This document shows, in pieces, positions 41,709-63,832 of a stretch of 64,000 bases of DNA. Position 1 is the stretch's first letter. Each line of letters begins with the position of its first letter. The DNA is from a virus. The notes beneath the pieces were generated by a model, which saw only the letters and a list, made by a program, of their open reading frames with translations, was not told where the DNA came from and searched no databases. Made by a program: the position numbers and the translations under genes. The stretch is taken from the IMG/VR virus record IMGVR_UViG_3300032116_000089, positions 1 to 64,000 of that record; one strand, 5' to 3'.

Positions 41709-42674
41709 TCAAGCCGTATATGTTGGATTAATAGTTACAGTAGTAAGTCCACTGCCTCCCGGTTCGGTTCCAAATACAACTAAATCATTTACTATAGCGT
41801 CTAAGTAATATCCACCAGCACCAGCTTCTTCTGGCTTGCCCATGACCACAAAGCTTACAGAACGTAATTTTTGAGCATCATCACCAACTCTGTATGATAA
41901 AGCCACTGTATTCTCGCTGAAATCTTCTCTACTAGAAGCTGTTACTCTACCGTTACTATGACCAACTGCTACATAGTTGTTATCTTTAAATATGCCAGAA
42001 TTAAAAATAATTGTAAACTTGCCAGTAGCTTCTTTTTTAATGCCAGAGACATTATATGAATCAAGTACTGATGGGCTACCATTACCGCCAATGCCGCTAC
42101 CTTGGAATCTTATCCAAGCCTTAGCAACTCCTCTGGCAGAATCTAGCTTTGATGTATCTTTTAGGAATGTAAAGTTTGTACCACTTCCAACATTAATAGT
42201 CTCTGAAGTATTTGTTAGCTTGCTAAATTGTAGACCTCTATAGCCATTGTTGCTAGTTGGATCACCTTGACCACTAGCATTGATCCAAAAAGTTGACATA
42301 CCAAGGCTTCCGGCCATTGATCTTGTTCCGCTAACTGGTAAATACTGAGTATGAGGATCTCCGGTATTCAAACCATCTAATTGATTATGTAATATACTGC
42401 CGGGACCGGGATATGGAACTCTTTGCATATCAGTTCCATTTGGAGCATTAGGGAACACTATGCCAGATTCTACATATAATATGCCACCTAATCTCACATG
42501 GTTAACAAATGGTGTTTCGGAATTAAAATTACCACTGGCTACAATTTGATTTATAGATTCAACAGTATCTATAATACTGCTTCTGACATCGGCGGCTGAA
42601 ATTTGTCCAGCGTTGTTGTCTGGTATGACACCGCTAATATATGAAATTAAACCACTCTTTGATCTAACAGTCAT
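41709..42674 (-). CDS. Tail fibre/adhesin protein with short N-terminal anchor
   Basis: 321 residues, GGAGG ribosome site. Residues about 8-45 (LISYISGVIPDNNAGQISAA, DVRSSIIDTVESINQIV) match the first 45 residues of the 1071-residue fibre upstream, so both appear to use one virion-attachment module. Then there is a shaft with HNQLDGLNTGDPHTQYLPVSG, a well-known phage-fibre segment, and a beta-rich C-terminal domain (KAWIRFQGSGIGGNGSPSVL and VALSYRVGDDAQKLRSVSFV). It is a short receptor-binding or accessory fibre. Confidence 0.75.
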   Translation of the reverse strand: MTVRSKSGLISYISGVIPDNNAGQISAADVRSSIIDTVESINQIVASGNFNSETPFVNHVRLGGILYVESGIVFPNAPNGTDMQRVPYPGPGSILHNQLDGLNTGDPHTQYLPVSGTRSMAGSLGMSTFWINASGQGDPTSNNGYRGLQFSKLTNTSETINVGSGTNFTFLKDTSKLDSARGVAKAWIRFQGSGIGGNGSPSVLDSYNVSGIKKEATGKFTIIFNSGIFKDNNYVAVGHSNGRVTASSREDFSENTVALSYRVGDDAQKLRSVSFVVMGKPEEAGAGGYYLDAIVNDLVVFGTEPGGSGLTTVTINPTYTA

Positions 42675-43259: not shown

Positions 43260-43859
43260 CTACATAGTATCTAATTCTTCGTCATTTTCTGGAACTGGTT
43301 CATTTGCTAGTAATTTGCGGGATTTTTTAATAGCTCTATAAACTAACATTTTGCCAATTGCGTCCATAAATGGCAGACCTCTGCGCTTTGCTTCATCTCT
43401 AAGCCATCCAATAATTGTATCTATATTTTCTTCGCACCAATCATTTCCTTTTTCATTCATTTCTAAAGCGTGTCGCTTACAAGAGCAACTATCTGTCATT
43501 TGAATTCCGACAGACTTAATCATTTTTGATAGTATAGTACCGCAATGGTTGGGATTTTCCTCTAATGTTTTAGGATATAATGATCGTAAGTATTTGGCTG
43601 GATCATCACCAAATAACTGAGTAATTTTATTTTCTGCCTGAGATTTTGTCCAATCTCCAATTAAGTCATAGTCAGAACCATTCCAAATTGGTATATTTAT
43701 TTGTAGTCCAATTATTTGTGCTGACACAGATTTGGATTTTGGATTATCTATAAAAATAAACTCTAAGTTTTCTAAGATAACTGGATTTGGATTAACTACT
43801 TTTCCTGCGTTATCAGAATAAGGCGGTGGTTGAATTGTAATAGAATTTTTAAGTTTCAT
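43260..43859 (-). CDS. Cys-motif protein, unknown function
   Basis: 199 residues, AAAGGAAA ribosome site. A compact conserved-looking block runs from HCGTILSKMIKSVGIQMTDS through CSCKRHALEMNEKGNDWC to NIDTIIGWLRDEAKRRGLPF (about residues 104-165). C-x-C, M-N-x-x-G-x-x-W-C and W-L-x-x-E-A-x-x-R-G-x-P-F form a striking signature that could bind metal. I recall similar motifs in other phage or environmental proteins but cannot name a family. It lies between the mucin-like genes and the connector; assembly factor or virion component are equally possible. Confidence 0.55.
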   Translation of the reverse strand: MKLKNSITIQPPPYSDNAGKVVNPNPVILENLEFIFIDNPKSKSVSAQIIGLQINIPIWNGSDYDLIGDWTKSQAENKITQLFGDDPAKYLRSLYPKTLEENPNHCGTILSKMIKSVGIQMTDSCSCKRHALEMNEKGNDWCEENIDTIIGWLRDEAKRRGLPFMDAIGKMLVYRAIKKSRKLLANEPVPENDEELDTM

Positions 43860-43918: not shown

Positions 43919-45610
43919 TTAGCCAAATCGCACACAAAATGTCATAGTCTCTACAGCGCCTTCGTCACCGGGATTAGGCGGTGGAGGTGTAAAGTTAGGA
44001 TATGCACAATTACATCCAAAATCGCAGGAATCAACAAGCAAAAGCCATTCGTCTTGGCCATTCCATCCCCAAAGGCAATTTCCTCCTCCGCAAACACATA
44101 TGCCGCCCGTACACATATCATTTTCTTTGCAGCATGTCCCATTACAGCATGTTTCATCGGGATCGCAAAGATCTACACATCCAGCCGGTGTGCATACTTT
44201 ACACAGAGTTGGGTTACAGCAGATACCCTGACAGCATGGAGCAATTGGATCACATCTATCAACGCAATTATTGCCCATACAGTCTTCGCAAGCCATTTTA
44301 TTACATGGTGGATCACAGCCGGGTGGATTTGGTGATGGAGTAGGTGGCTCGCAAGCTGGACCAACGATTGCAGTTGGGCAACAAAGACCACCAACAGGAG
44401 TCCATCCCTGTGGACAGCACCCTATAGATGTAATTTCAAAACCAATCGGACAGTTTCCCGGAGGTAACGTTGTAGATGGATTTTCAGTAGTACTTGGAGT
44501 GGAAGTTGTAGATGATGGAGTTTGTGTAGTACTACTAGTTGGCTCAGTAGTCGGAACTGTAGTTGTCCCTGTTGTTGTGCTGCTAGTGCCTGTGGTTGAA
44601 GTTGAAGTTGAAGTTGAAGTTGAAGTGGATGTTGTAGTTGTAGTACTAGTTGTCGTTGTTGGTGGATCTATACAAGCAAACTCATCAAAAATATTTTCTG
44701 GACAACATTTAATCGCGCCGGTAGATGGATCTATTAATATATAAGATCCACAAGGGCAACAACTTTCACCCTGTATATGATCAATGAGACAATAATTTGC
44801 GCCATATACTATACATGGGTTGGGGGTTGTTGTAGTTGTAGTTGTGCTTGTAGATGTAGAGGTGCTTGTAGTTGTGGGTTCTACAGTTGTAGTTGTAGTT
44901 GTGGGTTCTACAGTTGTAGTTGTAGTTGTGCTTGTGGATGTAGAGGTGCTTGTTGACGTAGAAGTACTTGTTGACGTAGAAGTGCTGGTTGATGTTGAAG
45001 TGCTGGTTGATGTTGATGTGGAAGTAGTTGTTGGGATGAGCGTCGTAGTGCTGCTAGTTGTAGTGCTACTAGTTGTTGTACTACTAGTTGTTGTTGGGCA
45101 TGGAATATCAATAGTTATAGAATAAGGATTTAAACTAATTGATGGTGGGACTTCGCAACAAGTGCTATCAAAATCACATATACTAGTTATAGATACAAGT
45201 AATTTTTTGTTGAATAGATTTTTAGTGGAACTATTACAATCAAAAATTGGAATATTTATGTTATTGTCACCTATATTATTGACACTAATAAATCCAAGTA
45301 TGCTATCTGTCATATACTCGCTTACATACACTTGAATAGTATTGCTCAAAGTAACTGGATATAGATTTGCATTATCAATATTTTCTGCATACCAAAATAA
45401 TTCAAAGCCAGTAATAGTTATACTAGAGTCTACGACGCATTTTTGCGTGGTGGTTATTAATGATTCGCCATGCTGTATAAGTACTGATTTATCATGGACA
45501 AGCTTGAGATCAATACTACCACTTGTATGCAATACTCTTAGCCCAAGTCCACCATTTGTGTACTTGGTTCCTAATGGAAAATAGATCGATCCACAGTTAC
45601 ACGATGACAT
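43919..45610 (-). CDS. Mucin-like Thr/Ser-repeat, Cys-rich virion adhesin 1
   Basis: 563 residues. N-terminus MSSCNCGSIYFPLGTKYTNG leads a beta-rich domain of about 175 residues (for example VTLSNTIQVYVSEYMTD). Then come long Thr/Ser tracts (TTSSTTT and TSTSTST, about residues 180-270, with another near 320-390) broken by a Cys-rich insert (NYCLIDHIQGESCCPCGSY). The C-terminal third has many Cys with a repeated CVDxCDPxxxCCxGxCC pattern: CVDRCDPIAPCCQGICC and CVDLCDPDETCCNGTCC. The final stretch (NCLWGWNGQDEWLLLVDSC) is aromatic. Extracellular, disulfide-stabilised and possibly O-glycosylated adhesin is the inference. It pairs with the next gene, which shares the T/S linker. Confidence 0.7.
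   Translation of the reverse strand: MSSCNCGSIYFPLGTKYTNGGLGLRVLHTSGSIDLKLVHDKSVLIQHGESLITTTQKCVVDSSITITGFELFWYAENIDNANLYPVTLSNTIQVYVSEYMTDSILGFISVNNIGDNNINIPIFDCNSSTKNLFNKKLLVSITSICDFDSTCCEVPPSISLNPYSITIDIPCPTTTSSTTTSSTTTSSTTTLIPTTTSTSTSTSTSTSTSTSTSTSTSTSTSTSTSTSTTTTTTVEPTTTTTTVEPTTTSTSTSTSTTTTTTTPNPCIVYGANYCLIDHIQGESCCPCGSYILIDPSTGAIKCCPENIFDEFACIDPPTTTTSTTTTTSTSTSTSTSTSTTGTSSTTTGTTTVPTTEPTSSTTQTPSSTTSTPSTTENPSTTLPPGNCPIGFEITSIGCCPQGWTPVGGLCCPTAIVGPACEPPTPSPNPPGCDPPCNKMACEDCMGNNCVDRCDPIAPCCQGICCNPTLCKVCTPAGCVDLCDPDETCCNGTCCKENDMCTGGICVCGGGNCLWGWNGQDEWLLLVDSCDFGCNCAYPNFTPPPPNPGDEGAVETMTFCVRFG
44594..44623 (-). repeat. 6-bp tandem repeat in mucin-like gene
   Basis: Five direct copies of the plus-strand hexamer GTTGAA, encoding alternating Ser-Thr in the fibre reading frame. 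Hexamers are in-frame, so copy-number change would alter length without a frameshift. Adjacent 44820-45100 is a more degenerate Thr/Ser-codon tract. Confidence 0.8.
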
Positions 45611-45620
45611 TTATTGACTC

Positions 45621-46802
45621 TTAAGGATTTGGGGGTGGACAATCTAGAATATGCGCCGCTAAACAATCTGAATGACACTTATACTTATAAAGTCCGTCTT
45701 CCCAACAAGAATGACCATAATCTTCTATACATTGAGCATCTATTATTGGTTCTATAGAAGATGGTCTACAGGCATCACACTGGTATGCTGGAGAAGGACA
45801 TTGACAACATCCACATTCAGACGCATCTCCAGTAAACGTCCAGTATGGTGGCTGATCGCATCCACAGCTTTCATCTGGAGCATTCAGAATAAAATTTTCT
45901 ATGCATGATATGTTAAGACTTGCGTTCCACTTATTACCGCACGGAGAATTTGGAGCAGAAGGGTTACATGAAATAGAGCCAATAATTATATCTCCACATC
46001 CTAATGTTCCATTTATAGACCAAGTATTGTCTCCGCTCTTAGTAAAGCTAGCTGTGGCGTTCCTATCAGCACACTCTGAACCAAATCTAACTATACCATT
46101 ACCGTCCCAGTTGCAACAATTAGGATCTTGAGTAGTGCTTGTAGAAGTACTTGTCGAAGTCGAAGTACTTGTCGAAGTCGAAGTACTTGTCGAAGTCGAA
46201 GTACTTGTCGAAGTCGAAGTACTTGTCGAAGTCGAAGTACTTGTCGAAGTCGAAGTACTTGTCGAAGTCGAAGTACTTGTGCTAGTAGTAGTTATGCAAC
46301 TTGATTCTACAATTACTGTAAATTCATCAGTATCAATAGTATTTCCAGATAAGTTTTTAGTGAGTACATCTATAGTATACCAAATTATATTACTACTATT
46401 AAGCCAAGTCCAAGGATAAGCTGGTACATTAGTGTATGATGGGGCTTGTCCGTCGAACGGATTAGGTATTCCATACATGTTAAAATATAATCCACTACCG
46501 CTAATTTCAAACAATGGTCTAGACTTCAGTGCGAATTTTGAATCATCCAGTTCAATATAAAACGGTTCACATCCAGCTGATGACATTAGTATGTCAGCAA
46601 CTTTTATGAATAATGGATCTAGTGTTTTTACTGGTAGATTTAGTACATAAACAGACTTATTGTAAGGTGGGCATGGTGCATTTTCATCTGGCAATACAAA
46701 GTAATCGATATCATATGGATCAGCAGGAACCGCTGGTCCACGTTGATCATATTTGGAATATGGAGATGGTAGTTGTATGCACGGATAATTAGGCCGTCCC
46801 AT
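45621..46802 (-). CDS. Mucin-like Thr/Ser-repeat, Cys-rich virion adhesin 2
   Basis: 393 residues. The first 170 residues form a beta-rich domain (YFVLPDENAPCPPYNKSVYV; KSRPLFEISGSGLYFNMYGI), followed by a perfect Thr-Ser linker of roughly 50 residues encoded by an 18-bp tandem repeat. A Cys-rich C-terminal domain follows: DPNCCNWDGNGIVRFGSECA, CGCCQCPSPAYQCDACRPSS and GHSCWEDGLYKYKCHSDC. No recognised family. The layout (domain, Thr/Ser linker, disulfide-rich head) parallels the neighbour downstream. Both are probably virion surface proteins because of the operon; a host- or environment-binding role is inferred. Confidence 0.7.
   Translation of the reverse strand: MGRPNYPCIQLPSPYSKYDQRGPAVPADPYDIDYFVLPDENAPCPPYNKSVYVLNLPVKTLDPLFIKVADILMSSAGCEPFYIELDDSKFALKSRPLFEISGSGLYFNMYGIPNPFDGQAPSYTNVPAYPWTWLNSSNIIWYTIDVLTKNLSGNTIDTDEFTVIVESSCITTTSTSTSTSTSTSTSTSTSTSTSTSTSTSTSTSTSTSTSTSTSTSTSTSTSTTQDPNCCNWDGNGIVRFGSECADRNATASFTKSGDNTWSINGTLGCGDIIIGSISCNPSAPNSPCGNKWNASLNISCIENFILNAPDESCGCDQPPYWTFTGDASECGCCQCPSPAYQCDACRPSSIEPIIDAQCIEDYGHSCWEDGLYKYKCHSDCLAAHILDCPPPNP
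46144..46280 (-). repeat. 18-bp perfect tandem repeat (7.6 copies)
   Basis: Seven full and one partial copies of GAAGTACTTGTCGAAGTC (plus strand). It encodes TSTSTS on the minus strand in the adhesin frame. The copies are essentially identical, implying recent expansion. Being a multiple of three, unequal pairing would change linker length in frame. Confidence 0.95.
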
Positions 46803-46812
46803 AATCTATCCT

Positions 46813-49800
46813 CTATGGATCACAACAGCATGATGTGTCTACTGCGCTTATCCAAATTGGTCTATATTCTCTGTTTACTAAACCAGCAATGACATATGCG
46901 CCAGAATGTATGACAGATGTTATATCTCTATTGAATATAAATATTGTGCCAGAGTTTGCCCAATCATTGTCTTTAATAAGCATTACACCGCTGGTTTTGT
47001 TTCCATTTGTTGGAGCTTGCAATCCGCTTGGCATATATCCTTCTATAAACATAGTGCGGATTAAATTAATTCCGCTATTTCCTATAGATATACCACTATT
47101 TCCTAGATTGACTCCACTCTGAGCTAGATTTGTGGCGTGAGTTATTCCACTAGAAGTATCAAGGGATGTGCCATCGCTAAACCTAATAGCTCCTCTTAGA
47201 CGTAAATCGCCGTTAAGTTCAGCAAACGGTCTTCCAGATGGATCTGGTGGAGTATAGTATGTTGTAGCATTCAACATCGGATTCTTAACGTGATCTAAAA
47301 CTAATAAATCAGCAGATCCGCTAGCACTAAATCTAAAACGTAAATTATTAGATGGATATAGTAAATTTGTTCCACTATTAATAACTTCAATTATATTAGT
47401 TTTTAGATGTAAGCTTTCTGTATCATTAGCATTATTGATATATAATCTTCCGCCACTTGGCATTATAAGTTTTTTATCAATGTTATTGGGACCAATAGTG
47501 CCACTAAATAATAACTTATCATTTAAACCTAATAGGAATTGATAAGATCCACTCTCTGAACTTCCAATGTTATGACCAATAATGATGTTGCCACTAGTAT
47601 TAGATAACGAAGGAGTCTTATTAAAAGAATAGTTTCCAAAGACTAAGTTATCATATGTAATATTAAGGCCACTAGCTGAGTTTTGACCAATAACTATATT
47701 ATTGTTTCCAGAAGTTAGATTATATAGTGACTCATAACCAATTGAAGTGTTGCCAGACCCAGAGTGAATATTAAATAATGACTTATATCCATAGCTAGTA
47801 TTGTACATTGTTTTTCTAGATATGTCTCTTCTTCCAGACGGAGACATGTATCCAGCATATGTATTCCCGCTTGGGTCAGTATAAACTGCTCTAGCATCTA
47901 AATTGTCTAGCTTATTAACAACTAAGTCAAAGTTATTGCCAGATGAATCTAAGTAAAACAATGAGTTATGTTGTCTAGCAAATTCTTTGTATGTATGAAG
48001 ATTATATATCTTACCGTATCCGCTCGTTGGGGTTACGGAAGAAGTGCTAACAAATCTGTTATCTTTAAGACTAATGGCTGGAAGTGCTGGGCCACCACTG
48101 TATCCAACTGTAATCATTGCGTTGGTATTGCCGCTAGATAGTATCCCTATTTGTTGAGAATTTTTTAATCTGGCAAAAATAATTTGTCCAGAATCTTTAA
48201 ACATATTTATGTCAAGAACACCGCTTCGGCTTAAATAGGCAATCTCTGCGCCACTCAATTCGCAATTTAATGGGGCTAATAGTTGTATGGCAGATTTCTT
48301 GAATCCGTTGTTTTGAGATGTAAATCTTCCAATGCAATCAATTTGAGATCTAACATTTAAAATTGTATTCGGTAAGATACTTTCGGTAATTGATGGAATA
48401 TTAGTTATTGAAAGAACAGAACCATTGTTATCATCCTTCATAAGAACTAGGCCATTGACGAACCTAGAAGTATCATTATATGATCCAATTACAAATCTAT
48501 CTGTCAAATCACCTTGAACATCTAAATCGGTATCATCTATATACTTTAATTCAAAACCACGAAGTTTATCTTTATTTTGATTAGCTATATCTTTGGTTCT
48601 TATCTTTGATCTACTCAAAAATCTCTGACTGACATTTACTCCAGACTCTAAAGCAGAGACTGAGAAAACATAATCAGAAGTGTCGCCAGAATTAGATATA
48701 AAGTTGATGTTTCCAACACCAGCTAAATGTCCGCTTGATGATCCGGGATTAACATTTAATACATTCTTACGAGAGATATATGTTATTCCACTATTAAAAA
48801 ATAATCCAAAACAATCATTTTCACCAAATGCTGATGGATTATAAGATACGATACTATTGGTTTTAATGTATCTATCGCTTGGTACTTGAAAATTTATGTT
48901 ACTATACCATGTAGCATTATACTGATCGCTAAAGCAAGACATGCCTTCGGATGGTTGTCTGAATATTAGACTATATTGTTTGTTACTTGTAAGTGACTTA
49001 AGAAATAATCCACCACCATCTAGGCCAGAATCTGTAAATAGCGGTTCATTAGATGAGTTAACGCCAAGGTAAAGGTTTTTATTATTATATGTTTCAGTAT
49101 CTACATTTATTAACCTACCTATGCTTGCTACATTATTTACAATTATGTTATCAAAATATCCAACTACCCATCTTCTAGATTGACTACCTAAAGAAAAATT
49201 ACTACCTATTGATGGTAGAAAAGATCCGCTTAGAGATATGGCCAAAGAAGATTCTCTTAATAAGGTAACATTATTGTTAAATCTAATGCCACTGGATACA
49301 TGAACATTTTGCCAAGGATAAAGTGCGTGTCCTAAATCAAAAGATCCGCTTCTAGATGGAGAAATATTGCCACTAACTTGCAGTGTTCCAAAATTATGAA
49401 GAGTTCTAGTTCCGACACCAAGTTGAATTCCAGATAAGTCTCCATGCAATAAAGGAATCCAACCAGAGCCTAATGGATTGCTGCATATATGAGTATCATT
49501 TACTGGATGATAAGCTAAGAAAAACTTATAGTTATCATCCTTAGCTACATAATAACCAGCACCATGACCGATAGCAATATTTCCAGTTCCTGACTTATTT
49601 TTGTTTAAAGCAAAGTTGCCCAAACCAATGTTCAAATTACCAACGGTATTGCCAGCAAGGGCATGATAACCAAGACCAATATTGCCTTGACCGTATACGT
49701 TACAAGATAAAGAATTGGACCCTAAAGCTGTATTTTGAACCCCTTGATAATTAGCCTTTAACGCAAAATATCCTACAGCAGTATTATCTTGACTGTTAGC

Positions 49801-50028
49801 TCCCGGTACATATAAATACTCTATAGTAGATTGACCAACTCTAGTATTGCCAGAAGGAGATGTGGCTAGATTGAGCGCTCTTAATTCTGCATCAGCTGTT
49901 AAATTATGTACAGAATCGATAATATCAAGGAGATTGTGTCTAATATCATATGGAGATATTTCGCCACGCGCTTGATCGGATATCTCATTTGTAATATTAC
50001 TAACAAGCTGGGACTTGCTTAATATCAT
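46813..50028 (-). CDS. Long tail fibre with YadA-head-like repeats
   Basis: 1071 residues. Residues about 5-45 (SQLVSNITNEISDQARGEIS, PYDIRHNLLDIIDSVHNLT) are shared with the 321-residue fibre as a virion-anchor module. Residues about 80-180 carry repeats NTAVGYFALKANYQGVQN, NTALGSNSLSCNVYGQGN, NIGLGYHALAGN and NIAIGHGAGYYV, which look like the YadA/trimeric-autotransporter head repeat (N-x-x-x-G-x-x-A/S). A second block occurs about 745-845 (NTSIGYESLYNLTSGN, NIVIGQNSASGLN, FNKTPSLSNTSGNIIIGH). The C-terminus (SGAYVIAGLVNREYRPIWIS) is beta-rich and ends CCCDP. A trimeric host-binding fibre is the likely role. Confidence 0.8.
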   Translation of the reverse strand: MILSKSQLVSNITNEISDQARGEISPYDIRHNLLDIIDSVHNLTADAELRALNLATSPSGNTRVGQSTIEYLYVPGANSQDNTAVGYFALKANYQGVQNTALGSNSLSCNVYGQGNIGLGYHALAGNTVGNLNIGLGNFALNKNKSGTGNIAIGHGAGYYVAKDDNYKFFLAYHPVNDTHICSNPLGSGWIPLLHGDLSGIQLGVGTRTLHNFGTLQVSGNISPSRSGSFDLGHALYPWQNVHVSSGIRFNNNVTLLRESSLAISLSGSFLPSIGSNFSLGSQSRRWVVGYFDNIIVNNVASIGRLINVDTETYNNKNLYLGVNSSNEPLFTDSGLDGGGLFLKSLTSNKQYSLIFRQPSEGMSCFSDQYNATWYSNINFQVPSDRYIKTNSIVSYNPSAFGENDCFGLFFNSGITYISRKNVLNVNPGSSSGHLAGVGNINFISNSGDTSDYVFSVSALESGVNVSQRFLSRSKIRTKDIANQNKDKLRGFELKYIDDTDLDVQGDLTDRFVIGSYNDTSRFVNGLVLMKDDNNGSVLSITNIPSITESILPNTILNVRSQIDCIGRFTSQNNGFKKSAIQLLAPLNCELSGAEIAYLSRSGVLDINMFKDSGQIIFARLKNSQQIGILSSGNTNAMITVGYSGGPALPAISLKDNRFVSTSSVTPTSGYGKIYNLHTYKEFARQHNSLFYLDSSGNNFDLVVNKLDNLDARAVYTDPSGNTYAGYMSPSGRRDISRKTMYNTSYGYKSLFNIHSGSGNTSIGYESLYNLTSGNNNIVIGQNSASGLNITYDNLVFGNYSFNKTPSLSNTSGNIIIGHNIGSSESGSYQFLLGLNDKLLFSGTIGPNNIDKKLIMPSGGRLYINNANDTESLHLKTNIIEVINSGTNLLYPSNNLRFRFSASGSADLLVLDHVKNPMLNATTYYTPPDPSGRPFAELNGDLRLRGAIRFSDGTSLDTSSGITHATNLAQSGVNLGNSGISIGNSGINLIRTMFIEGYMPSGLQAPTNGNKTSGVMLIKDNDWANSGTIFIFNRDITSVIHSGAYVIAGLVNREYRPIWISAVDTSCCCDP

Positions 50029-50860: not shown

Positions 50861-51868
50861 TCAGAAAGAACCGAGAACGATTCTGCGATTATCTAGAACA
50901 CCAAAGCCAAGTTCAGCCCATCCGTAGTAGCCAGCGCGTTGCTGACGATGTAGGGTGGGATCTTCGAATACCTGTAGCTGTTGCTTGACGGGCATTACGA
51001 AACTATCATTCATGGACTGATCAAGACCAACAACAAGTTCAACGTCGCTTGCCTGTACAGCACCGCCAAGATCGCTAGTGAAGAAGTTCTGGTACTGTTG
51101 ACCTTCGCCTAGTTCGTCTAGGTCATGGAGGTTAACACCAAAGATTCTTGTCACAACGGATGCGTCTGGAGCGGCATTGTAGATTTCACGACGGGTAACG
51201 TCATCAATCTGGTCTAGACCCCAGTTACGAATATCTTCTAAAGCTTCTGGCGATAGATAGATATCTGTTAAGCGGCCACGACCAACTGACGCGGAGTTAC
51301 CGCCAGAATTTCTACGCATGACTGTCTGCATGAGTGATACTAATCTCTTTGAGAATAGACCAGCTGTTGCATCAGCATCATAGACGAGGATGTTACGATC
51401 AACGCCAGCGGCTAGAATGGTGTGCCAGCCGTCATCGTTCATCTTCTTAGTGAAACCAGCTTCCATAACCTGCATGGCACGACCAACGATATCCCATCTG
51501 GCTTCGCGGGCAAAGCGAAGTAGATAGTCAACCGATGATGCGATTGTGTAGGTTGGAATCATTACGTAGTCGCCTTCGACTGAACGCTCTGGGATTCTAC
51601 CGTGACCGGGATTGGTGTAAGCGACATGCTCACCTTCAAGGCCGGGGGAGATAAGATCTAGAGGAAATTCAGTTGTTGAACCGGCTTCCACGTTAACGGT
51701 TTCGAAAATATTACCGAGGATATTACCAACTAAAACGCCCTTACGTAAGGGAAGTTCTAGAGCTTTGGCAAACTCACGTTGAGCAGCCATTGCTACATTG
51801 ATATCGGCATCCCCTGACTTGCGTAGGAGGGCGATAAAGTCATCGCTAGGTCTTTCAGTTATTGGCAT
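50861..51868 (-). CDS. Major capsid protein, HK97 fold
   Basis: 335 residues, AAAGGAG ribosome site. Signature segments for the HK97-like capsid of this gene neighbourhood: TERPSDDFIALLRKSGDADI at the start, IPERSVEGDYVMIPTYTIAS (about residues 92-111), RWDIVGRAMQVMEAGFTKKM (about 122-141) and TLHRQQRAGYYGWAELGFGV near the C-terminus. It self-assembles into the capsid. The order protease-scaffold, decoration, capsid is that of lambda-like head operons. Codon use differs from the neighbours: CGT and C/G-ending codons are frequent, as in highly expressed genes. There is a terminator after it. Confidence 0.9.
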   Translation of the reverse strand: MPITERPSDDFIALLRKSGDADINVAMAAQREFAKALELPLRKGVLVGNILGNIFETVNVEAGSTTEFPLDLISPGLEGEHVAYTNPGHGRIPERSVEGDYVMIPTYTIASSVDYLLRFAREARWDIVGRAMQVMEAGFTKKMNDDGWHTILAAGVDRNILVYDADATAGLFSKRLVSLMQTVMRRNSGGNSASVGRGRLTDIYLSPEALEDIRNWGLDQIDDVTRREIYNAAPDASVVTRIFGVNLHDLDELGEGQQYQNFFTSDLGGAVQASDVELVVGLDQSMNDSFVMPVKQQLQVFEDPTLHRQQRAGYYGWAELGFGVLDNRRIVLGSF

Positions 51869-57729: not shown

Positions 57730-60700
57730 TTAACCATAATTCTGAGAGAAAGAACCATACCAATAAGTTCCATCACTAATAAAACTTAATAAATCAACTT
57801 TGCTTGCTGTGCTTGTTATTGTTGGGGGTGTGCTGTCACTCCATCTGACCCCTGTGAATGTTGCTGTAAACGATCCGGCCCCAGTATTTAAAAATAATGA
57901 GAAACTCTTACCAGCAGTTGCTGTGGGCATAGTAAATGTGCAGTTACCCGTTAGTGTGCAAGTGTGTACTGTGCCACTGGCTAGACTTAAAGTTTTGCTA
58001 GTTCCACTGCTACCATTAGCTACAACACTTTCTGTGAAACTATCAAATGTGAGATTGCCATCAATATTAACATCTCCAAGAACATCTAGTGTTGTTGATG
58101 GTGTAGATGTTCCTATGCCAATACGACTATTACTTCTATCTGTACTAAATATAGTTCCACCACCAGCACCAATATCAGCATATAAACTTAGACCATTTGC
58201 GTTCAAATAAGCAACTGCCGAGGGGCCATTATCAATAATCACCAAGGTGCCGTCACTATTAATATAAACGCCCTGCTCACCATTTTTAGCAGAAAAGCCT
58301 CCTCCTGCTGGAGAACAAACAAAATCTCCATAAACTTGTAATTTTGTATCCGGATCAATACCACCTATACCAACATTACCGCTGCTGGTTACTACCAAAT
58401 TAGCAGCACCCGGCGAACCTCCTCCGTATTGAAACGATCCATCAGCATATCTCAGCGCCAAGGTGTTACCATTATTATCATAAAAACCTAATTCTCCTCC
58501 AAATGTATCTTCACCAAATTCAATACGACCCAGTAAATTAGATCCAAAAAAAGCAGTTCCATTAACGTCTAATTTAGCCGCTGGGGATGCTGTTCCTATG
58601 CCAACCCTGCCATCTGTATTTAAATAAACCTGCGCACCATTTTGAGTTGTAAAGCATATTGGATTATAGGACGTAATAGCATCATTAAAGCCTTGAAAAC
58701 AAGCAAATTCAGTATTACTACCAAAAGTTCCAGATGGATTAGTATTTGCCGCTATTCCCACAGTACCAGCACTATTACCAAACCAACTAATACTACCATA
58801 AGATTTAAATCCAAGACTTTTAAAAACACCATTGACATCCAATTTGGCAGCGGGCGAGTTAGTCCCTATTCCTATTCTAGCATTGGCTCTATCAGTATAA
58901 AAGAATGGAGATGCTGCCGAATCGAACAATGTAAGTCCATTATCATCTATAGTAAGAGCGATATTTGGTCCAATATTATCATTAAATGCTAAACTTGGAA
59001 CTGAAGGATCAACAAATAGTCCTGCTGCACCGGCGCTTGGATCGCCAACAACAGTGCCGCAAGAAAAAGAACCTCTTACATCTAATTTGGCAGTAGGAGC
59101 GGTGATACCAATTCCTATGTTACCAAGATTATTTATTCTTAGTCTTTCCACCCCACTAGTACTAACGCCAAAAGTATTCGCTGCTGGACTAAACAAGCCA
59201 GTATCAGTATCATTAATAAATTCAAAAGATGGCAATGAAGCAGTGCCTGATCCTCCAATAAACGATCCTGTTGCTAACACATCTCCAGCAACATGAAGTT
59301 TAGAGGTTGGGGTTTGCGTACCAATTCCTACTCCGGTATTATTTACAACCATCCAAGAGGTATGATTACCAGTAACATCATATCCCAAAGAGTGTTTATA
59401 TCCAGAACTACTAACACTATAGTTTAATGTAGAACCATCTGCTTTATATATTCTAGTATTATTATCACCATATATACTAAAAGTACCACCTCTTATAATA
59501 TTATTTTGTGTAATAATATTTCCATTAACGGTAAGTGCTGCACTACCGGCGATAGCAGAATTGTTAATGTCAATGCTAGTAAATAAACCAGTTCCAACAA
59601 CGTGAAGTGTGGCTGTTGGACTTGCAGTTCCTATACCAACATTTCCACCCATAAAAACCGCAGCATAGTTTCCTAAGATTGTTCCAGTAACTAATGTGCT
59701 TGCATTAACATAAAGACCATAGCTATTAGTAGTAGTATATTGACCACTACTAGATGGAGATATTAACAAACCGTATGTACTATTAAGATTACTACTACTA
59801 GTAAGAAAAGTTGGATTCACATATAATGATGTGTGATTTTGACCATTTGCGCTTTGAGAAGCATGAGAATTTGATACTATTATTCCGGTAGTACCAACGC
59901 TGTTTCCTTGTAAAAGGCCAGCAACTTGGAGTGGGGCGGTTGGAGAAGTGGTTCCAATACCAACATATCCACTATTAGTAATCCTCATTCTTTCAGTACC
60001 ATAGTCGGTATCAGAAGAACCAGCACCTATTCTGGTGCTAAAAGCGATATGTCCATTGCTATCGTTAGAAGTAGAAAATATTTGCATTATTCGTGAAGAG
60101 GCATTGTAGTTGATACCCATTCTATAATTATTGTCAAAAAACATACCAAGCCTAGAGCTACTCCATGTTTGCTGTATAGCCCCATTTACTTCAAGTCTAG
60201 CTGAAGAACTAGGAGTATTTGTATTTATTCCAACGCTAGTTCCATTATCAAAAACTAAACTATTACTTAACCCACTACCGCCAGTTCCAAACTTGCTTAA
60301 GTAATTAGATGTCCCTACCGGTAACAGTCCACTTACACTACTATTAAAATTAGTTATATCAGATGACGAATGGGTGTGTCCATTCAAACTAACAATCGTA
60401 TCATTAACACTTAGGGTTGAGAAATTTCCAGATCCATTTTGATCTATGGTCCAATAAGGATGGTTAAGAGATGTAAGTTCTCCTATATATATTGTTCCCG
60501 GTGATCCTCCATCAAAATCATTTACAGATAAGAGGGCATTAGAAATCAGATATCCGGTTGACAATATATTATTACCATATATATCTCCAATAACTTCTAG
60601 CTGAACAGTGGGAGTGGATGTTCCTATCCCAACGTTACCACTAGATAACAATCCGTTTGTAAAAGTATGAATTGCATCTATAGTTCTAGCATTATTTATA

Positions 60701-62001
60701 TGCACATACTGAGAATGATCATCATCAGCCAAGCCAAATAAAATCCCGTGATCATTTTGAACAACGCCGATAGATGTTGATTGTATAGCTACTCTAATAT
60801 CTAATATACTTTGTAAGCTACTTTTAGGAGTATTGGTAAAAGTATTGTCGGTTATAAAAATTAAACGATATAGTGGTCTTATTTCTGATGTTGGTATATT
60901 AGTTAAATCAATATCGCTCCAATTATTATTGCTTGTGGCACTATTTAAATTATCATCTTCTCTTTGACCAAGTATAGCAAGAATCGGCTCATTAATATCG
61001 TTTGTTGCCACAATCCACATAGCAAAATATTTTTTATCACCAACATTAGGAGTTGTCCATGTTCCACCAGAGTATAAATTATATTGCGCTCTAGTAGCAT
61101 TGTATTTTAGTGGAAAACTTGTGGCAGTATCTCGTACCCACTGTCCCGTAGTTCCGCTGTGATAGTAAACAGGAATATATGCAATGGGACTTAATTGTTG
61201 AATGAAACTTCCAGCGCCAACTCCATTTGTTATATTTATTATAATATCTTCTTGATATAAAGTACCATCAGATATATCAAATTGAGCATGACTATTGGAC
61301 GATCCATTTCCTAGAAGCGTATATCCTCCGATACTCAAGCCATTAATATACTGCATACCAAAAGTATTATGAATCCACTTGTGGGTCATGCTATCCATTT
61401 TGATTCCATGACGCTCTTCACCAAAAAATGTGCTTTGATTAATACCACCATTCCAATGGATAAATGCTACTGGCACATCAGTATCAAAATCAAATGCAGA
61501 AGTTTTAGTTTGTAAAATATAAGGAGGCGTGGTATCAAAATGAATATAATTCAATGCTGTTCCTGAGCCAAGAACAACAGTCTCAACCGTGTTCTTAACA
61601 ACTTTAATTCCTTCAATATATAAAGTATAAGAACTTCCAGAAGTGGCTGGTTGTATTGTGAATGTGCGAGTACTATCATTGAAACTAATAGTGCTATCAT
61701 CTCTGTTCACAAAACCTTGAGGTTCTTGACTTAATGTATTGACCTCTATCGAAGAATGGTTATGCCCACTAACACTAACAGGAACACCACTAACAGCAAG
61801 ATAATTAAAGTTACCACTTGCTGGAGTTATGTAGGTTCCACTTATACTAGTAACACCAAGATTAATTACAGAGTTGGCATTATTCTTAGTATAGAATTTA
61901 CCATCAGCAATATTTATAGCAAGTTCGCCCTGAGATAAACCGCTAGCAGCGGGAGCAGCGCCGGATGTGCTACTCCTTTTGTGTTGTATAGTATTAGCCA
62001 T
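57730..62001 (-). CDS. Tail fibre with VGIGT/P-x-L-x-V-x-G repeats
   Basis: 1423 residues, AAAGGAC ribosome site. N-terminus MANTIQHKRSSTSGAAPAAS leads LSQGELAINIADGKFYTKN, matching the anchor of the neighbouring 602-residue fibre. Ten copies of the V-G-I-G-T-x-x-P-x-x-x-L-x-V-x-G module (for example GNVGIGTSTPTVQLEVIGDI, GYVGIGTTSPTAPLQVAGLL, GRVGIGTASPAAKLDVNG) run over about residues 450-1330. Each is flanked by short variable segments. This repeat is widespread in phage fibres and related surface proteins. The C-terminus (HTCTLTGNCTFTMPTATAGK, FTATFTGVRWSDSTPPTITS, YWYGSFSQNYG) is a compact beta tip. Probably a trimeric host-range fibre. Confidence 0.85.
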   Translation of the reverse strand: MANTIQHKRSSTSGAAPAASGLSQGELAINIADGKFYTKNNANSVINLGVTSISGTYITPASGNFNYLAVSGVPVSVSGHNHSSIEVNTLSQEPQGFVNRDDSTISFNDSTRTFTIQPATSGSSYTLYIEGIKVVKNTVETVVLGSGTALNYIHFDTTPPYILQTKTSAFDFDTDVPVAFIHWNGGINQSTFFGEERHGIKMDSMTHKWIHNTFGMQYINGLSIGGYTLLGNGSSNSHAQFDISDGTLYQEDIIINITNGVGAGSFIQQLSPIAYIPVYYHSGTTGQWVRDTATSFPLKYNATRAQYNLYSGGTWTTPNVGDKKYFAMWIVATNDINEPILAILGQREDDNLNSATSNNNWSDIDLTNIPTSEIRPLYRLIFITDNTFTNTPKSSLQSILDIRVAIQSTSIGVVQNDHGILFGLADDDHSQYVHINNARTIDAIHTFTNGLLSSGNVGIGTSTPTVQLEVIGDIYGNNILSTGYLISNALLSVNDFDGGSPGTIYIGELTSLNHPYWTIDQNGSGNFSTLSVNDTIVSLNGHTHSSSDITNFNSSVSGLLPVGTSNYLSKFGTGGSGLSNSLVFDNGTSVGINTNTPSSSARLEVNGAIQQTWSSSRLGMFFDNNYRMGINYNASSRIMQIFSTSNDSNGHIAFSTRIGAGSSDTDYGTERMRITNSGYVGIGTTSPTAPLQVAGLLQGNSVGTTGIIVSNSHASQSANGQNHTSLYVNPTFLTSSSNLNSTYGLLISPSSSGQYTTTNSYGLYVNASTLVTGTILGNYAAVFMGGNVGIGTASPTATLHVVGTGLFTSIDINNSAIAGSAALTVNGNIITQNNIIRGGTFSIYGDNNTRIYKADGSTLNYSVSSSGYKHSLGYDVTGNHTSWMVVNNTGVGIGTQTPTSKLHVAGDVLATGSFIGGSGTASLPSFEFINDTDTGLFSPAANTFGVSTSGVERLRINNLGNIGIGITAPTAKLDVRGSFSCGTVVGDPSAGAAGLFVDPSVPSLAFNDNIGPNIALTIDDNGLTLFDSAASPFFYTDRANARIGIGTNSPAAKLDVNGVFKSLGFKSYGSISWFGNSAGTVGIAANTNPSGTFGSNTEFACFQGFNDAITSYNPICFTTQNGAQVYLNTDGRVGIGTASPAAKLDVNGTAFFGSNLLGRIEFGEDTFGGELGFYDNNGNTLALRYADGSFQYGGGSPGAANLVVTSSGNVGIGGIDPDTKLQVYGDFVCSPAGGGFSAKNGEQGVYINSDGTLVIIDNGPSAVAYLNANGLSLYADIGAGGGTIFSTDRSNSRIGIGTSTPSTTLDVLGDVNIDGNLTFDSFTESVVANGSSGTSKTLSLASGTVHTCTLTGNCTFTMPTATAGKSFSLFLNTGAGSFTATFTGVRWSDSTPPTITSTASKVDLLSFISDGTYWYGSFSQNYG

Positions 62002-62023: not shown

Positions 62024-63832
62024 TTAAAATGATCCACCATCAAGTGAACAATCAACAATTGCAGCACAAACGGTTCCTGCTGTCAAGTATGTTGCTGTAG
62101 TAACAGCGGTAACGTGTCCTAACCCATCTACAGTGATGCTAGCGATACCATTACTACCCTGTGCGCCAGTTAAAGTAGATGTATCAGCATGACCTATAGT
62201 AATACTGCCGTTGCCATTAGTAATATCAACGCTTGTTCCAGCAGTCAACGTTGCTTTAGTCAATGTATTACCAGTACTATTACCAATCAATAATTGGCCA
62301 TCTGTATAACTAGTTTGATTAGTTCCTCCATTAGCCACCGGTAGTGTTCCACTAACATGTGCTGTAAGACCAACTTTACCCCAAGATGGTGCAGTATTAA
62401 CACCGCCAGCCAATAATACATTGCCGGTAGCCACATCAGCAAGTTTTGCTAAAGATGTTGTTGTATTAGCATAAAGCAAATCACCAATAGCATATGAGCT
62501 TTGACCAGTTCCGCCCTTATCGGCAGCAATTGTTGTAGCATTCCAAGTTCCGGATGTTACAGATCCGCCAGACATGACTCTAAAAGTGATATCATTATTG
62601 TCATCATAAATAATAAATGCTGCATCCGTAGTAGGTTGATAACCAGCATTAATTACTGCAAAAGAATTAGTGCCAGTAAATGTTTGACTTGCACTCAGTC
62701 TGGCAATATCGCTAGCTAAAAATCCACCATCTTTAATGATTTTACCGGTAGAACCATCAAACATGGCAATATTACCACTAGTAGCACTAGTTGGACCAGT
62801 TACAAGAATACTAGCATCAGCTATATTTGTTTGTAAAATAACCCAATTGCTACCAACAACAGCATGAGTACCAGCGGATGTACCATCGGTTGTGCAAATA
62901 AGAGTATCATTTACTTCTACTGCTGGACCAGAAGCTCCGCCAATTTTACCAGCAACGCTTACTTTATAGGTCCAACCCCTATCACCAGATGGATAATTAG
63001 GATTTGTTGAACAATCAATTGCACCTTTAAATATCATTGCATCATTAGTAGCAATACCAGAAACAATCATATTATCAACATAGGTCTTAACAGCATCTGC
63101 TCTTGGAATAAAAGTGGAACTATTATTTGTATCTAAATTTGTTGATACTTGATATCCAGTATTTAAGGTTTTACTACTATTAGCTGCCCATGTTGGGATA
63201 TATCCACTAACATTTATAGATGTTGATCTTACTACTGTACTATCAACAGCAATACTATCTGCTGATACAGAAATACCATCTCCTTGACCAATATCGAAAG
63301 TCCTATTAGCTGATAATGTACCACCACCAACAAGACCGCTACCAGCAATAATATCCAAACCACTAGTAGCCGCACCAATATCATCAAGAATTTGATCTTT
63401 ACTAACTGATTTTAGCGTTTGGGTGGATGAATTAGGATTATTATCAAAAACTGCAAAATATCCAACACTGTTAGATGAGGTATTAATAGCTACTGCACTA
63501 ATGCCACTATTAAAAGTTGTAGTATTACCAAATGTTTTTAAACCATTGACGGTTTGATCGCCAGTTGTATAGACACCATTAGTGACAGTCTCGGCGTTAC
63601 CAGTTACACTAATAGGCCAAGTGCCGCTAGCATTAGTGCCGCCGCGATGTGCAAAATATCCAGTTCCACCAATTTGTTCAATACTAGAAGCTGCGCCACC
63701 TACTCCGCTGCCATAACCATAATAAAGAATATTGTCATTCTCATTGAATGCTAATTCACCGTTAGATAGTGATGATGGTTTTCCAGCAGCACCGCTAGCT
63801 GGTCTTCTCTTGATTTTGATTGTATTAGCCAT
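62024..63832 (-). CDS. Tail fibre protein, 602 residues
   Basis: 602 residues, AAAGGGGA ribosome site; late-promoter-like element 32 nt upstream. N-terminus MANTIKIKRRPASGAAGKPS, SLSNGELAFNENDNILYYG is a common phage-fibre anchor, shared with the next gene. Then repeated blocks: GNTTTFNSGISAVAINTSSN, IAGSGLVGGGTLSANRTFDI, GQSSYAIGDLLYANTTTSLA and NGGTNQTSYTDGQLLIGNST. The latter patterns (G-G-T-G-Q/N-S/T-S-Y followed by D/G-x-L-L-x-x) are typical of long fibres. The C-terminus (TGAQGSNGIASITVDGLGHV then CAAIVDCSLDGGSF) ends with DGGSF. The end resembles the 40-residue fragment to the right and the tape-measure end (DGGIV). Confidence 0.85.
   Translation of the reverse strand: MANTIKIKRRPASGAAGKPSSLSNGELAFNENDNILYYGYGSGVGGAASSIEQIGGTGYFAHRGGTNASGTWPISVTGNAETVTNGVYTTGDQTVNGLKTFGNTTTFNSGISAVAINTSSNSVGYFAVFDNNPNSSTQTLKSVSKDQILDDIGAATSGLDIIAGSGLVGGGTLSANRTFDIGQGDGISVSADSIAVDSTVVRSTSINVSGYIPTWAANSSKTLNTGYQVSTNLDTNNSSTFIPRADAVKTYVDNMIVSGIATNDAMIFKGAIDCSTNPNYPSGDRGWTYKVSVAGKIGGASGPAVEVNDTLICTTDGTSAGTHAVVGSNWVILQTNIADASILVTGPTSATSGNIAMFDGSTGKIIKDGGFLASDIARLSASQTFTGTNSFAVINAGYQPTTDAAFIIYDDNNDITFRVMSGGSVTSGTWNATTIAADKGGTGQSSYAIGDLLYANTTTSLAKLADVATGNVLLAGGVNTAPSWGKVGLTAHVSGTLPVANGGTNQTSYTDGQLLIGNSTGNTLTKATLTAGTSVDITNGNGSITIGHADTSTLTGAQGSNGIASITVDGLGHVTAVTTATYLTAGTVCAAIVDCSLDGGSF

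What the first reader, a model, noticed from the sequence alone, without database searches (positions are those of the whole stretch)
43919..46802. Two adjacent mucin-like adhesins with disulfide-rich heads
Both proteins combine a beta-rich N-terminal domain, a Thr/Ser (mucin-like) linker and a Cys-rich domain that is not typical of intracellularly assembled phage proteins. The CVDxCDPxxxCCxGxCC repeat in one is a regular module. Together with phage-encoded sugar genes they suggest an extracellular, perhaps glycosylated, adhesin system whose role (binding of mucus, polysaccharide or host surface) is not described in the families I know.
Basis: partly seen in the sequence, partly recalled or inferred. 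Interest (0 to 1): 0.85.

Follow-up and report, generated by a model that had tools for sequence, protein, structure and literature searches.

The report
Modular mucin-like phage surface adhesin pair
Two neighbouring genes of an uncultured, probably long-tailed phage encode proteins with a conserved base, a Ser/Thr stalk that could carry sugars, and a cysteine-rich tip; related phages keep the base but swap the tips, as expected for an adhesive appendage on the virus particle.

Summary
P1 (43919-45610, - strand, 563 aa, 48 Cys) and P2 (45621-46802, - strand, 393 aa, 24 Cys) are the two most Cys-rich of 37 window proteins and the only ones with pure Ser/Thr stretches. Neither has a convincing Pfam or PHROG match, and neither matches any named phage. 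The phage belongs to a large uncultivated clade (capsid protein 81-95% identical in the 80 IMG/VR loci kept). At the same position, between capsid/fibre genes and a putative head-tail adaptor, many relatives carry proteins with P1's N-terminal domain (confident beta-rich model, no known fold match) or P2's N-terminal region (cadherin-like model), mostly with Ser/Thr linkers and variable C-terminal modules. The P1 N-terminal domain occurs once in each of 26 of 49 records. Between two close relatives the base is 82-98% identical while most of the rest falls to 18-46%, and modules recur in both P1-type and P2-type proteins. I read P1/P2 as a modular adhesin pair with swappable tips, probably on head or neck. 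Glycosylation, disulfides, virion location and ligand are untested. The GDP-mannose dehydratase gene also occurs in relatives lacking P1/P2, so the sugar link is weak. Verdict: real, new protein families, known general strategy.

The parts
43919..45610 (-). P1, 563 aa: A domain, Ser/Thr linker, Cys module, Ser/Thr linker, Cys modules M1-M2-M3
   Evidence: ORF; Cys and Ser/Thr content; AlphaFold model
45086..45610 (-). P1 N-terminal A domain (residues 1-175), beta-rich; C4, C6, G7, P12, S143, C145 invariant in the 15-row alignment
   Evidence: alignments; profile found once in each of 26 of 49 relatives' records; pLDDT block means 70-96 over residues 1-150
44822..45097 (-). P1 first Ser/Thr linker (residues 172-263)
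   Evidence: tandem repeats
44666..44821 (-). P1 middle Cys module (residues 264-315)
   Evidence: sequence
44456..44665 (-). P1 second Ser/Thr-rich linker (residues 316-385)
44342..44455 (-). P1 module M1 (CC..GW..GLCC), shared with L005, L089, L090, L091
   Evidence: profile search
44090..44317 (-). P1 module M2: the twofold CVDxCDPxxxCCxGxCC repeat; among loci searched by profile shared only with L005
   Evidence: model shows a series of short beta hairpins, pLDDT about 90
43922..44092 (-). P1 module M3 (CxWxWNG..C..CxC), shared with the P2-type protein of L089
45621..46802 (-). P2, 393 aa: B1 peptide, cadherin-like B2 domain, Ser/Thr linker, modules M4-M5
   Evidence: ORF; alignment; model
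46653..46802 (-). P2 N-terminal B1 peptide (MGRPxxPC...), also found ahead of the A domain in proteins of L034, L041, L028, L021, L018
46293..46625 (-). P2 B2 domain (about residues 60-170), cadherin-like beta sandwich
   Evidence: best PDB fold matches are cadherin EC domains, probability up to 0.91 but E 0.09; relatives
46131..46295 (-). P2 Ser/Thr linker, 18-bp tandem repeat
45804..46118 (-). P2 module M4 (CCNWDG...), shared with L089, L090, L091 and with A-domain proteins of L018 and L021
   Evidence: pLDDT block means 80-95 over residues 231-330
45624..45803 (-). P2 C-terminal module M5, no relative found among the loci searched
43260..43859 (-). Neighbour nk199 (199 aa); within the capsid clade its C-terminal domain (CSCxxRAxxMNxxG...) is found only in loci with A-domain proteins; in the unrelated contig L086 it is fused to a Cys-rich protein
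46813..50028 (-). Neighbour sp1071, virion structural/fibre protein with YadA-like NTAxGxxAL repeats (repeat naming from own knowledge)
   Evidence: PHROG 6002 virion structural 2e-25, PHROG 4636 tail spike 4e-13

Best explanation
P1 and P2 are virion surface proteins of a modular adhesive appendage, most likely on the head or neck. The conserved N-terminal parts (A domain; B1 peptide plus cadherin-like B2 domain) are the base that docks on the particle or on neighbouring fibre proteins. The Ser/Thr stretches are extended spacers that may carry glycans. The C-terminal Cys-rich and beta modules are exchangeable tips that contact something outside the particle, most plausibly a polysaccharide or protein on the host surface or in its mucilage. 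Because neither protein starts with a recognisable signal sequence (by eye), I infer that they are made in the cytoplasm and that the tip cysteines pair only after lysis, when particles meet oxygenated water. Shown here: architecture, locus conservation, base conservation, tip variability, module sharing. Inferred: location on the virion, spacer role, disulfides, adhesion.
For: Same position in relatives, between MCP/gp80/sp1071 genes and the nk173 gene. One A-domain gene per record in 26 of 49 records, and its presence is clustered on the capsid tree (3 changes against 13.6 in shuffles; near-copies contribute to this). The P1-type proteins of L005 and L055 are 82-98% identical in 50-residue blocks over the first 450 residues, the rest mostly 18-46%. 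Against the window, the first 150 residues keep 44-58% in L005, L055 and L089, where MCP is 94-95% and nk173 91-94%. Module M3 occurs in P1 and in a P2-type protein, M4 in P2-type and in A-domain proteins. Neighbour sp1071 matches virion structural and tail spike families, the gp80 neighbour a podophage fibre family. The B2 model resembles cadherin domains, weakly. Capsid fibres that make first contact are reported for phage 7-7-1 (PMC12796354) and head-first binding for HFTV1 (PMC9973310).
Against: No proteomic or imaging evidence of virion presence. No significant fold or sequence match for the A domain or P1's C-terminal part. Some relatives lack the genes (L014, L016, L038, L039: sp1071 is followed directly by nk173), so they are not essential for particle assembly across this clade. 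The window has other receptor-binding candidates, the tail fibre genes 57730-62001 and 62024-63832.
Confidence: 0.6

Rival explanations
1. P1/P2 are tail-side receptor-binding or tail-fibre accessory proteins, placed by chance of gene order next to the head genes.
For: Conserved base with variable tip is the classical tail-fibre pattern (own knowledge); a gene shortly downstream (41709-42674) matches a tail fibre family, and the cassette varies strongly.
Against: Position after MCP, gp80 and sp1071 and before nk173; the best-supported tail fibre genes (57730-62001, 62024-63832) lie elsewhere, upstream of the capsid genes.
Confidence: 0.2
2. The Ser/Thr stalks act mainly as a glycan coat that shields particles, with the Cys-rich ends as stability elements rather than binding sites.
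For: Pure Ser/Thr runs; a phage-encoded GDP-mannose dehydratase and a GT-D-fold hit below Pfam's cut-off; capsid and tail-tube glycans acting as a shield are reported for mycobacteriophages (as cited in PMC12619734).
Against: The tips vary and are swapped, which a coat does not require; the dehydratase gene also occurs in relatives without P1/P2.
Confidence: 0.1
3. The Cys modules bind metal (zinc or iron) in the reducing cytoplasm instead of forming disulfides, and the proteins serve another role during infection.
For: The proteins are made in the cytoplasm and show no signal sequence by eye; CxC and CC patterns can bind metals (general knowledge).
Against: Very many Cys in CC pairs with short hairpins in the model, location inside the structural gene run, fibre-type neighbours.
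Confidence: 0.08

Closest known systems
Capsid (head) fibres of tailed phages, e.g. Agrobacterium phage 7-7-1, phiCbK, phi29 gp8.5
   Same: Flexible surface appendages on the head; used for first contact with the flagellum in 7-7-1 (PMC12796354).
   Different: No sequence match to named phages; Ser/Thr stalks and Cys-rich tips did not come up in the passages read.
Ig-like decoration proteins such as T4 Hoc and T5 pb10
   Same: Surface beta domains; Ig-like domains are proposed to bind mucin glycans (PMC6867891; pb10: PMC5292684, listed).
   Different: A and B2 have no significant Ig match; Cys-rich variable tips and Ser/Thr linkers are extra.
Tail fibre / receptor-binding proteins with conserved N-terminus and variable C-terminus
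   Same: Conserved-base, swapped-tip evolution.
   Different: Genes sit between head and putative adaptor genes; separate tail fibre genes exist.
Glycosylated mycobacteriophage virions
   Same: Phage-encoded sugar genes and possible glycosylation of structural proteins (as cited in PMC12619734 and PMC11256854).
   Different: There the capsid and tail-tube subunits carry the glycans; here no glycan is shown and the candidate sites are dedicated Ser/Thr stalks.
Metazoan mucins and cadherins
   Same: Ser/Thr-rich stalk; B2 model is cadherin-like.
   Different: No homology detected by sequence; resemblance of style only.

Membership tests
Phage head fibre / capsid decoration proteins | Encoded in the structural (head) gene cluster | tested here: met
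   Between sp1071 and nk199/nk173, downstream of MCP
Phage head fibre / capsid decoration proteins | Present on the capsid of purified particles | not testable with these tools
   No proteomics or imaging available
Phage head fibre / capsid decoration proteins | Sequence or fold match to a known head fibre or decoration protein | tested here: not met
   No significant Pfam, PHROG, INPHARED, PDB-fold or (P1 only) BFVD match
Receptor-binding proteins with conserved base and variable tip | N-terminal conservation with C-terminal exchange among close relatives | tested here: met
   L005 vs L055 82-98% then mostly 18-46%; modules shared across protein types
Receptor-binding proteins with conserved base and variable tip | Demonstrated binding to a host surface ligand | not testable with these tools
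   Needs binding assays
Cadherin domain | Cadherin-like fold | tested here: inconclusive
   Top fold hits are cadherin EC domains, probability up to 0.91, E 0.09
Mucin-like glycoprotein | Long Ser/Thr-rich tracts | tested here: met
   30-residue windows at 100% Ser/Thr in P1 and P2 only
Mucin-like glycoprotein | O-glycans on the tract | not testable with these tools
   Needs mass spectrometry
Targets of diversity-generating retroelements | Reverse transcriptase in the same genome | tested here: not met
   No PF00078 match in the record; the record may be incomplete

The most novel reading that the evidence does not exclude
A widespread uncultivated phage clade carries a true phage mucin: an O-glycosylated, disulfide-locked appendage system with its own module-shuffling tip repertoire, matured after lysis and made partly with phage-encoded sugar enzymes.
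Probability: 0.2. Interest if true: 0.85.

Novelty: new variant of a known kind. Interest (0 to 1): 0.6.

Why it matters
It identifies two N-terminal domain families and several Cys-rich modules without a match in the libraries searched, at a defined, highly variable locus of an abundant phage clade whose only capsid match among named phages is Bacillus phage G (22%). If confirmed, it would show that phages build disulfide-rich, mucin-style adhesive stalks, a chemistry usually linked to eukaryotic extracellular proteins, and would give a marker for studying how such phages find hosts or particles in water.

Tried and rejected
Single-protein searches with full P1 and P2 found no relatives in IMG/VR; the 14-row A1 alignment was too divergent to search with, the 4-row subset A2 worked. 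A2 found nothing in GTDB genomes. MCP hits in four MAG contigs named as SAR202, Alphaproteobacteria, Chitinophagia and Flavobacteriales disagree, so no host is claimed. Diversity-generating retroelement: no reverse transcriptase in the record. An HIV gp120 hit of the Cys-rich end (E 0.018) was dismissed as chance. A direct tie between the sugar genes and P1/P2 was set aside as unproven because the dehydratase is also in loci without P1/P2. Literature searches for Thr-rich and Cys-rich phage proteins returned nothing on point.

Full report
Observation. P1 (43919-45610) and P2 (45621-46802) are two closely spaced - strand ORFs in a colinear run of structural genes. They hold 48 and 24 cysteines (8.5% and 6.1%; the other 35 window proteins average 0.75%), and only they contain 30-residue windows made wholly of Ser and Thr. 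The CVDxCDPxxxCCxGxCC motif occurs twice in P1 (residues 449 and 478); none of 20,000 shuffles of the C-terminal part gave a looser form of it. The P2 linker is a perfect 18-bp tandem repeat, so it can change length without a frameshift.

No known family. Neither protein has a convincing Pfam or PHROG match; the best is a PHROG of unknown function at E 0.031 for P2. There is no tblastn match in 50,697 phage records with P1, P2 or P1's Cys-rich end, nor with the Cys-rich end of L089's P2-type protein, and no relative of the full proteins was found in IMG/VR.

The phage clade. The major capsid protein is 81-95% identical in the 80 IMG/VR loci kept, out of 596 stretches confirmed as relatives, but among named phages only Bacillus phage G matches, at 22%. 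The terminase is closest to Bacillus Slash-type phages and Microcystis phage MaeS at about 25-27%; with a tape-measure-sized tail protein I infer a long-tailed type. Four MAG contigs with the capsid gene carry conflicting host names.

Conserved locus. In relatives, the place between sp1071 and nk173 often holds proteins with Ser/Thr linkers and many cysteines. Profiles built from P1 and P2 find an A domain (about 160 residues), a short B1 peptide and a B2 domain, in several orders and fusions: in L034, L041, L028, L018 and L021 the B1 peptide comes before A in one protein. A search of 49 records found exactly one A-domain gene in each of 26; several records are near duplicates and many are short, so the fraction is approximate. 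On a capsid-protein tree the presence label needs 3 changes against 13.6 in shuffles. L014, L016, L038 and L039 lack the cassette: sp1071 is followed directly by nk173.

Base and tip. P1-type proteins of L005 and L055 are 82-98% identical in 50-residue blocks over the first 450 residues and then mostly 18-46%. Across the closest relatives (L004, L005, L055, L089, L091, L093) MCP is 94-95% identical to the window, and where covered nk173 is 90-94% and nk199 74-79%, while the local P1 match, where one is reported, is 31-50% over 169-272 of 563 residues. Module M3 occurs in window P1 and in the P2-type protein of L089; M4 occurs in P2-type proteins and in A-domain proteins of L018 and L021. Other tips include an FGE-sulfatase domain in L004. 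I read this as domain shuffling onto a conserved base. Not every relative has a strong Ser/Thr linker: L018, L021, L015 and L050 reach only 53-70% Ser/Thr in their richest 30 residues.

Structure. AlphaFold gives confident beta structure for the A domain, the M2 hairpins and M4. Fold searches give no significant match for P1; for P2 the best hits are cadherin domains at probability up to 0.91 but E 0.09.

Neighbour nk199. Within the capsid clade its C-terminal domain is found only in loci with A-domain proteins. In L086, an unrelated contig found through the Cys motif, it is fused to a Cys-rich protein. That fusion suggests that the two work together.

Sugar genes. A GDP-mannose dehydratase (record 70961-72049, E 8e-105) lies near the terminase gene and has relatives in 42 other loci, including L014, L016, L038 and L039 that lack the cassette. 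A GT-D-fold hit at 829-1548 is below Pfam's cut-off. So glycosylation is possible but not specifically tied to P1/P2.

Mechanism. I commit to a modular adhesive surface appendage at about 60%; docking, post-lysis disulfide formation and ligand binding are inference. Reported fibre-first or head-first contact in other viruses (PMC12796354, PMC9973310) shows that such a role is plausible.

Novelty. The domains and their combination are new to the libraries searched; the strategy, a conserved base with exchangeable tips on a phage particle, is known.

Noticed in passing
L005:16042-16545, L055:16202-16705, L093:6793-8001, L004:16542-17810: A small nucleotidyltransferase-like ORF sits between the P2- and P1-type genes in L005 and L055; in L093 a similar segment follows a Thr-rich, Cys-containing part of the same ORF, and L004 has a matching hit. 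Pfam support is weak, below the cut-offs (E 0.02-0.05).
   Followed up: partly
L057:15922-18282: A Cys-rich, Ser/Thr-rich protein contains a Hint/intein-like stretch ending in VHNC; Pfam Hint hits are below their cut-offs.
   Followed up: partly
L004:17810-21007: The A-domain protein carries an FGE-sulfatase domain (E 1e-19) whose parts appear, by eye, in permuted order.
   Followed up: no
L040:15282-20753: A 1,823-aa A-domain protein with 121 Cys and many repeats of a Cys-containing unit with a PATP-like motif.
   Followed up: no
window 50861-51868: The capsid gene defines a very large, highly conserved uncultivated phage clade whose only match among the named phages searched is Bacillus phage G at 22% identity.
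   Followed up: partly
L083:8059-8925: A 288-aa ORF next to the dehydratase reads like a glycosyltransferase by eye (EHD motif) but has no supporting Pfam match and no relative in the fetched loci.
   Followed up: partly
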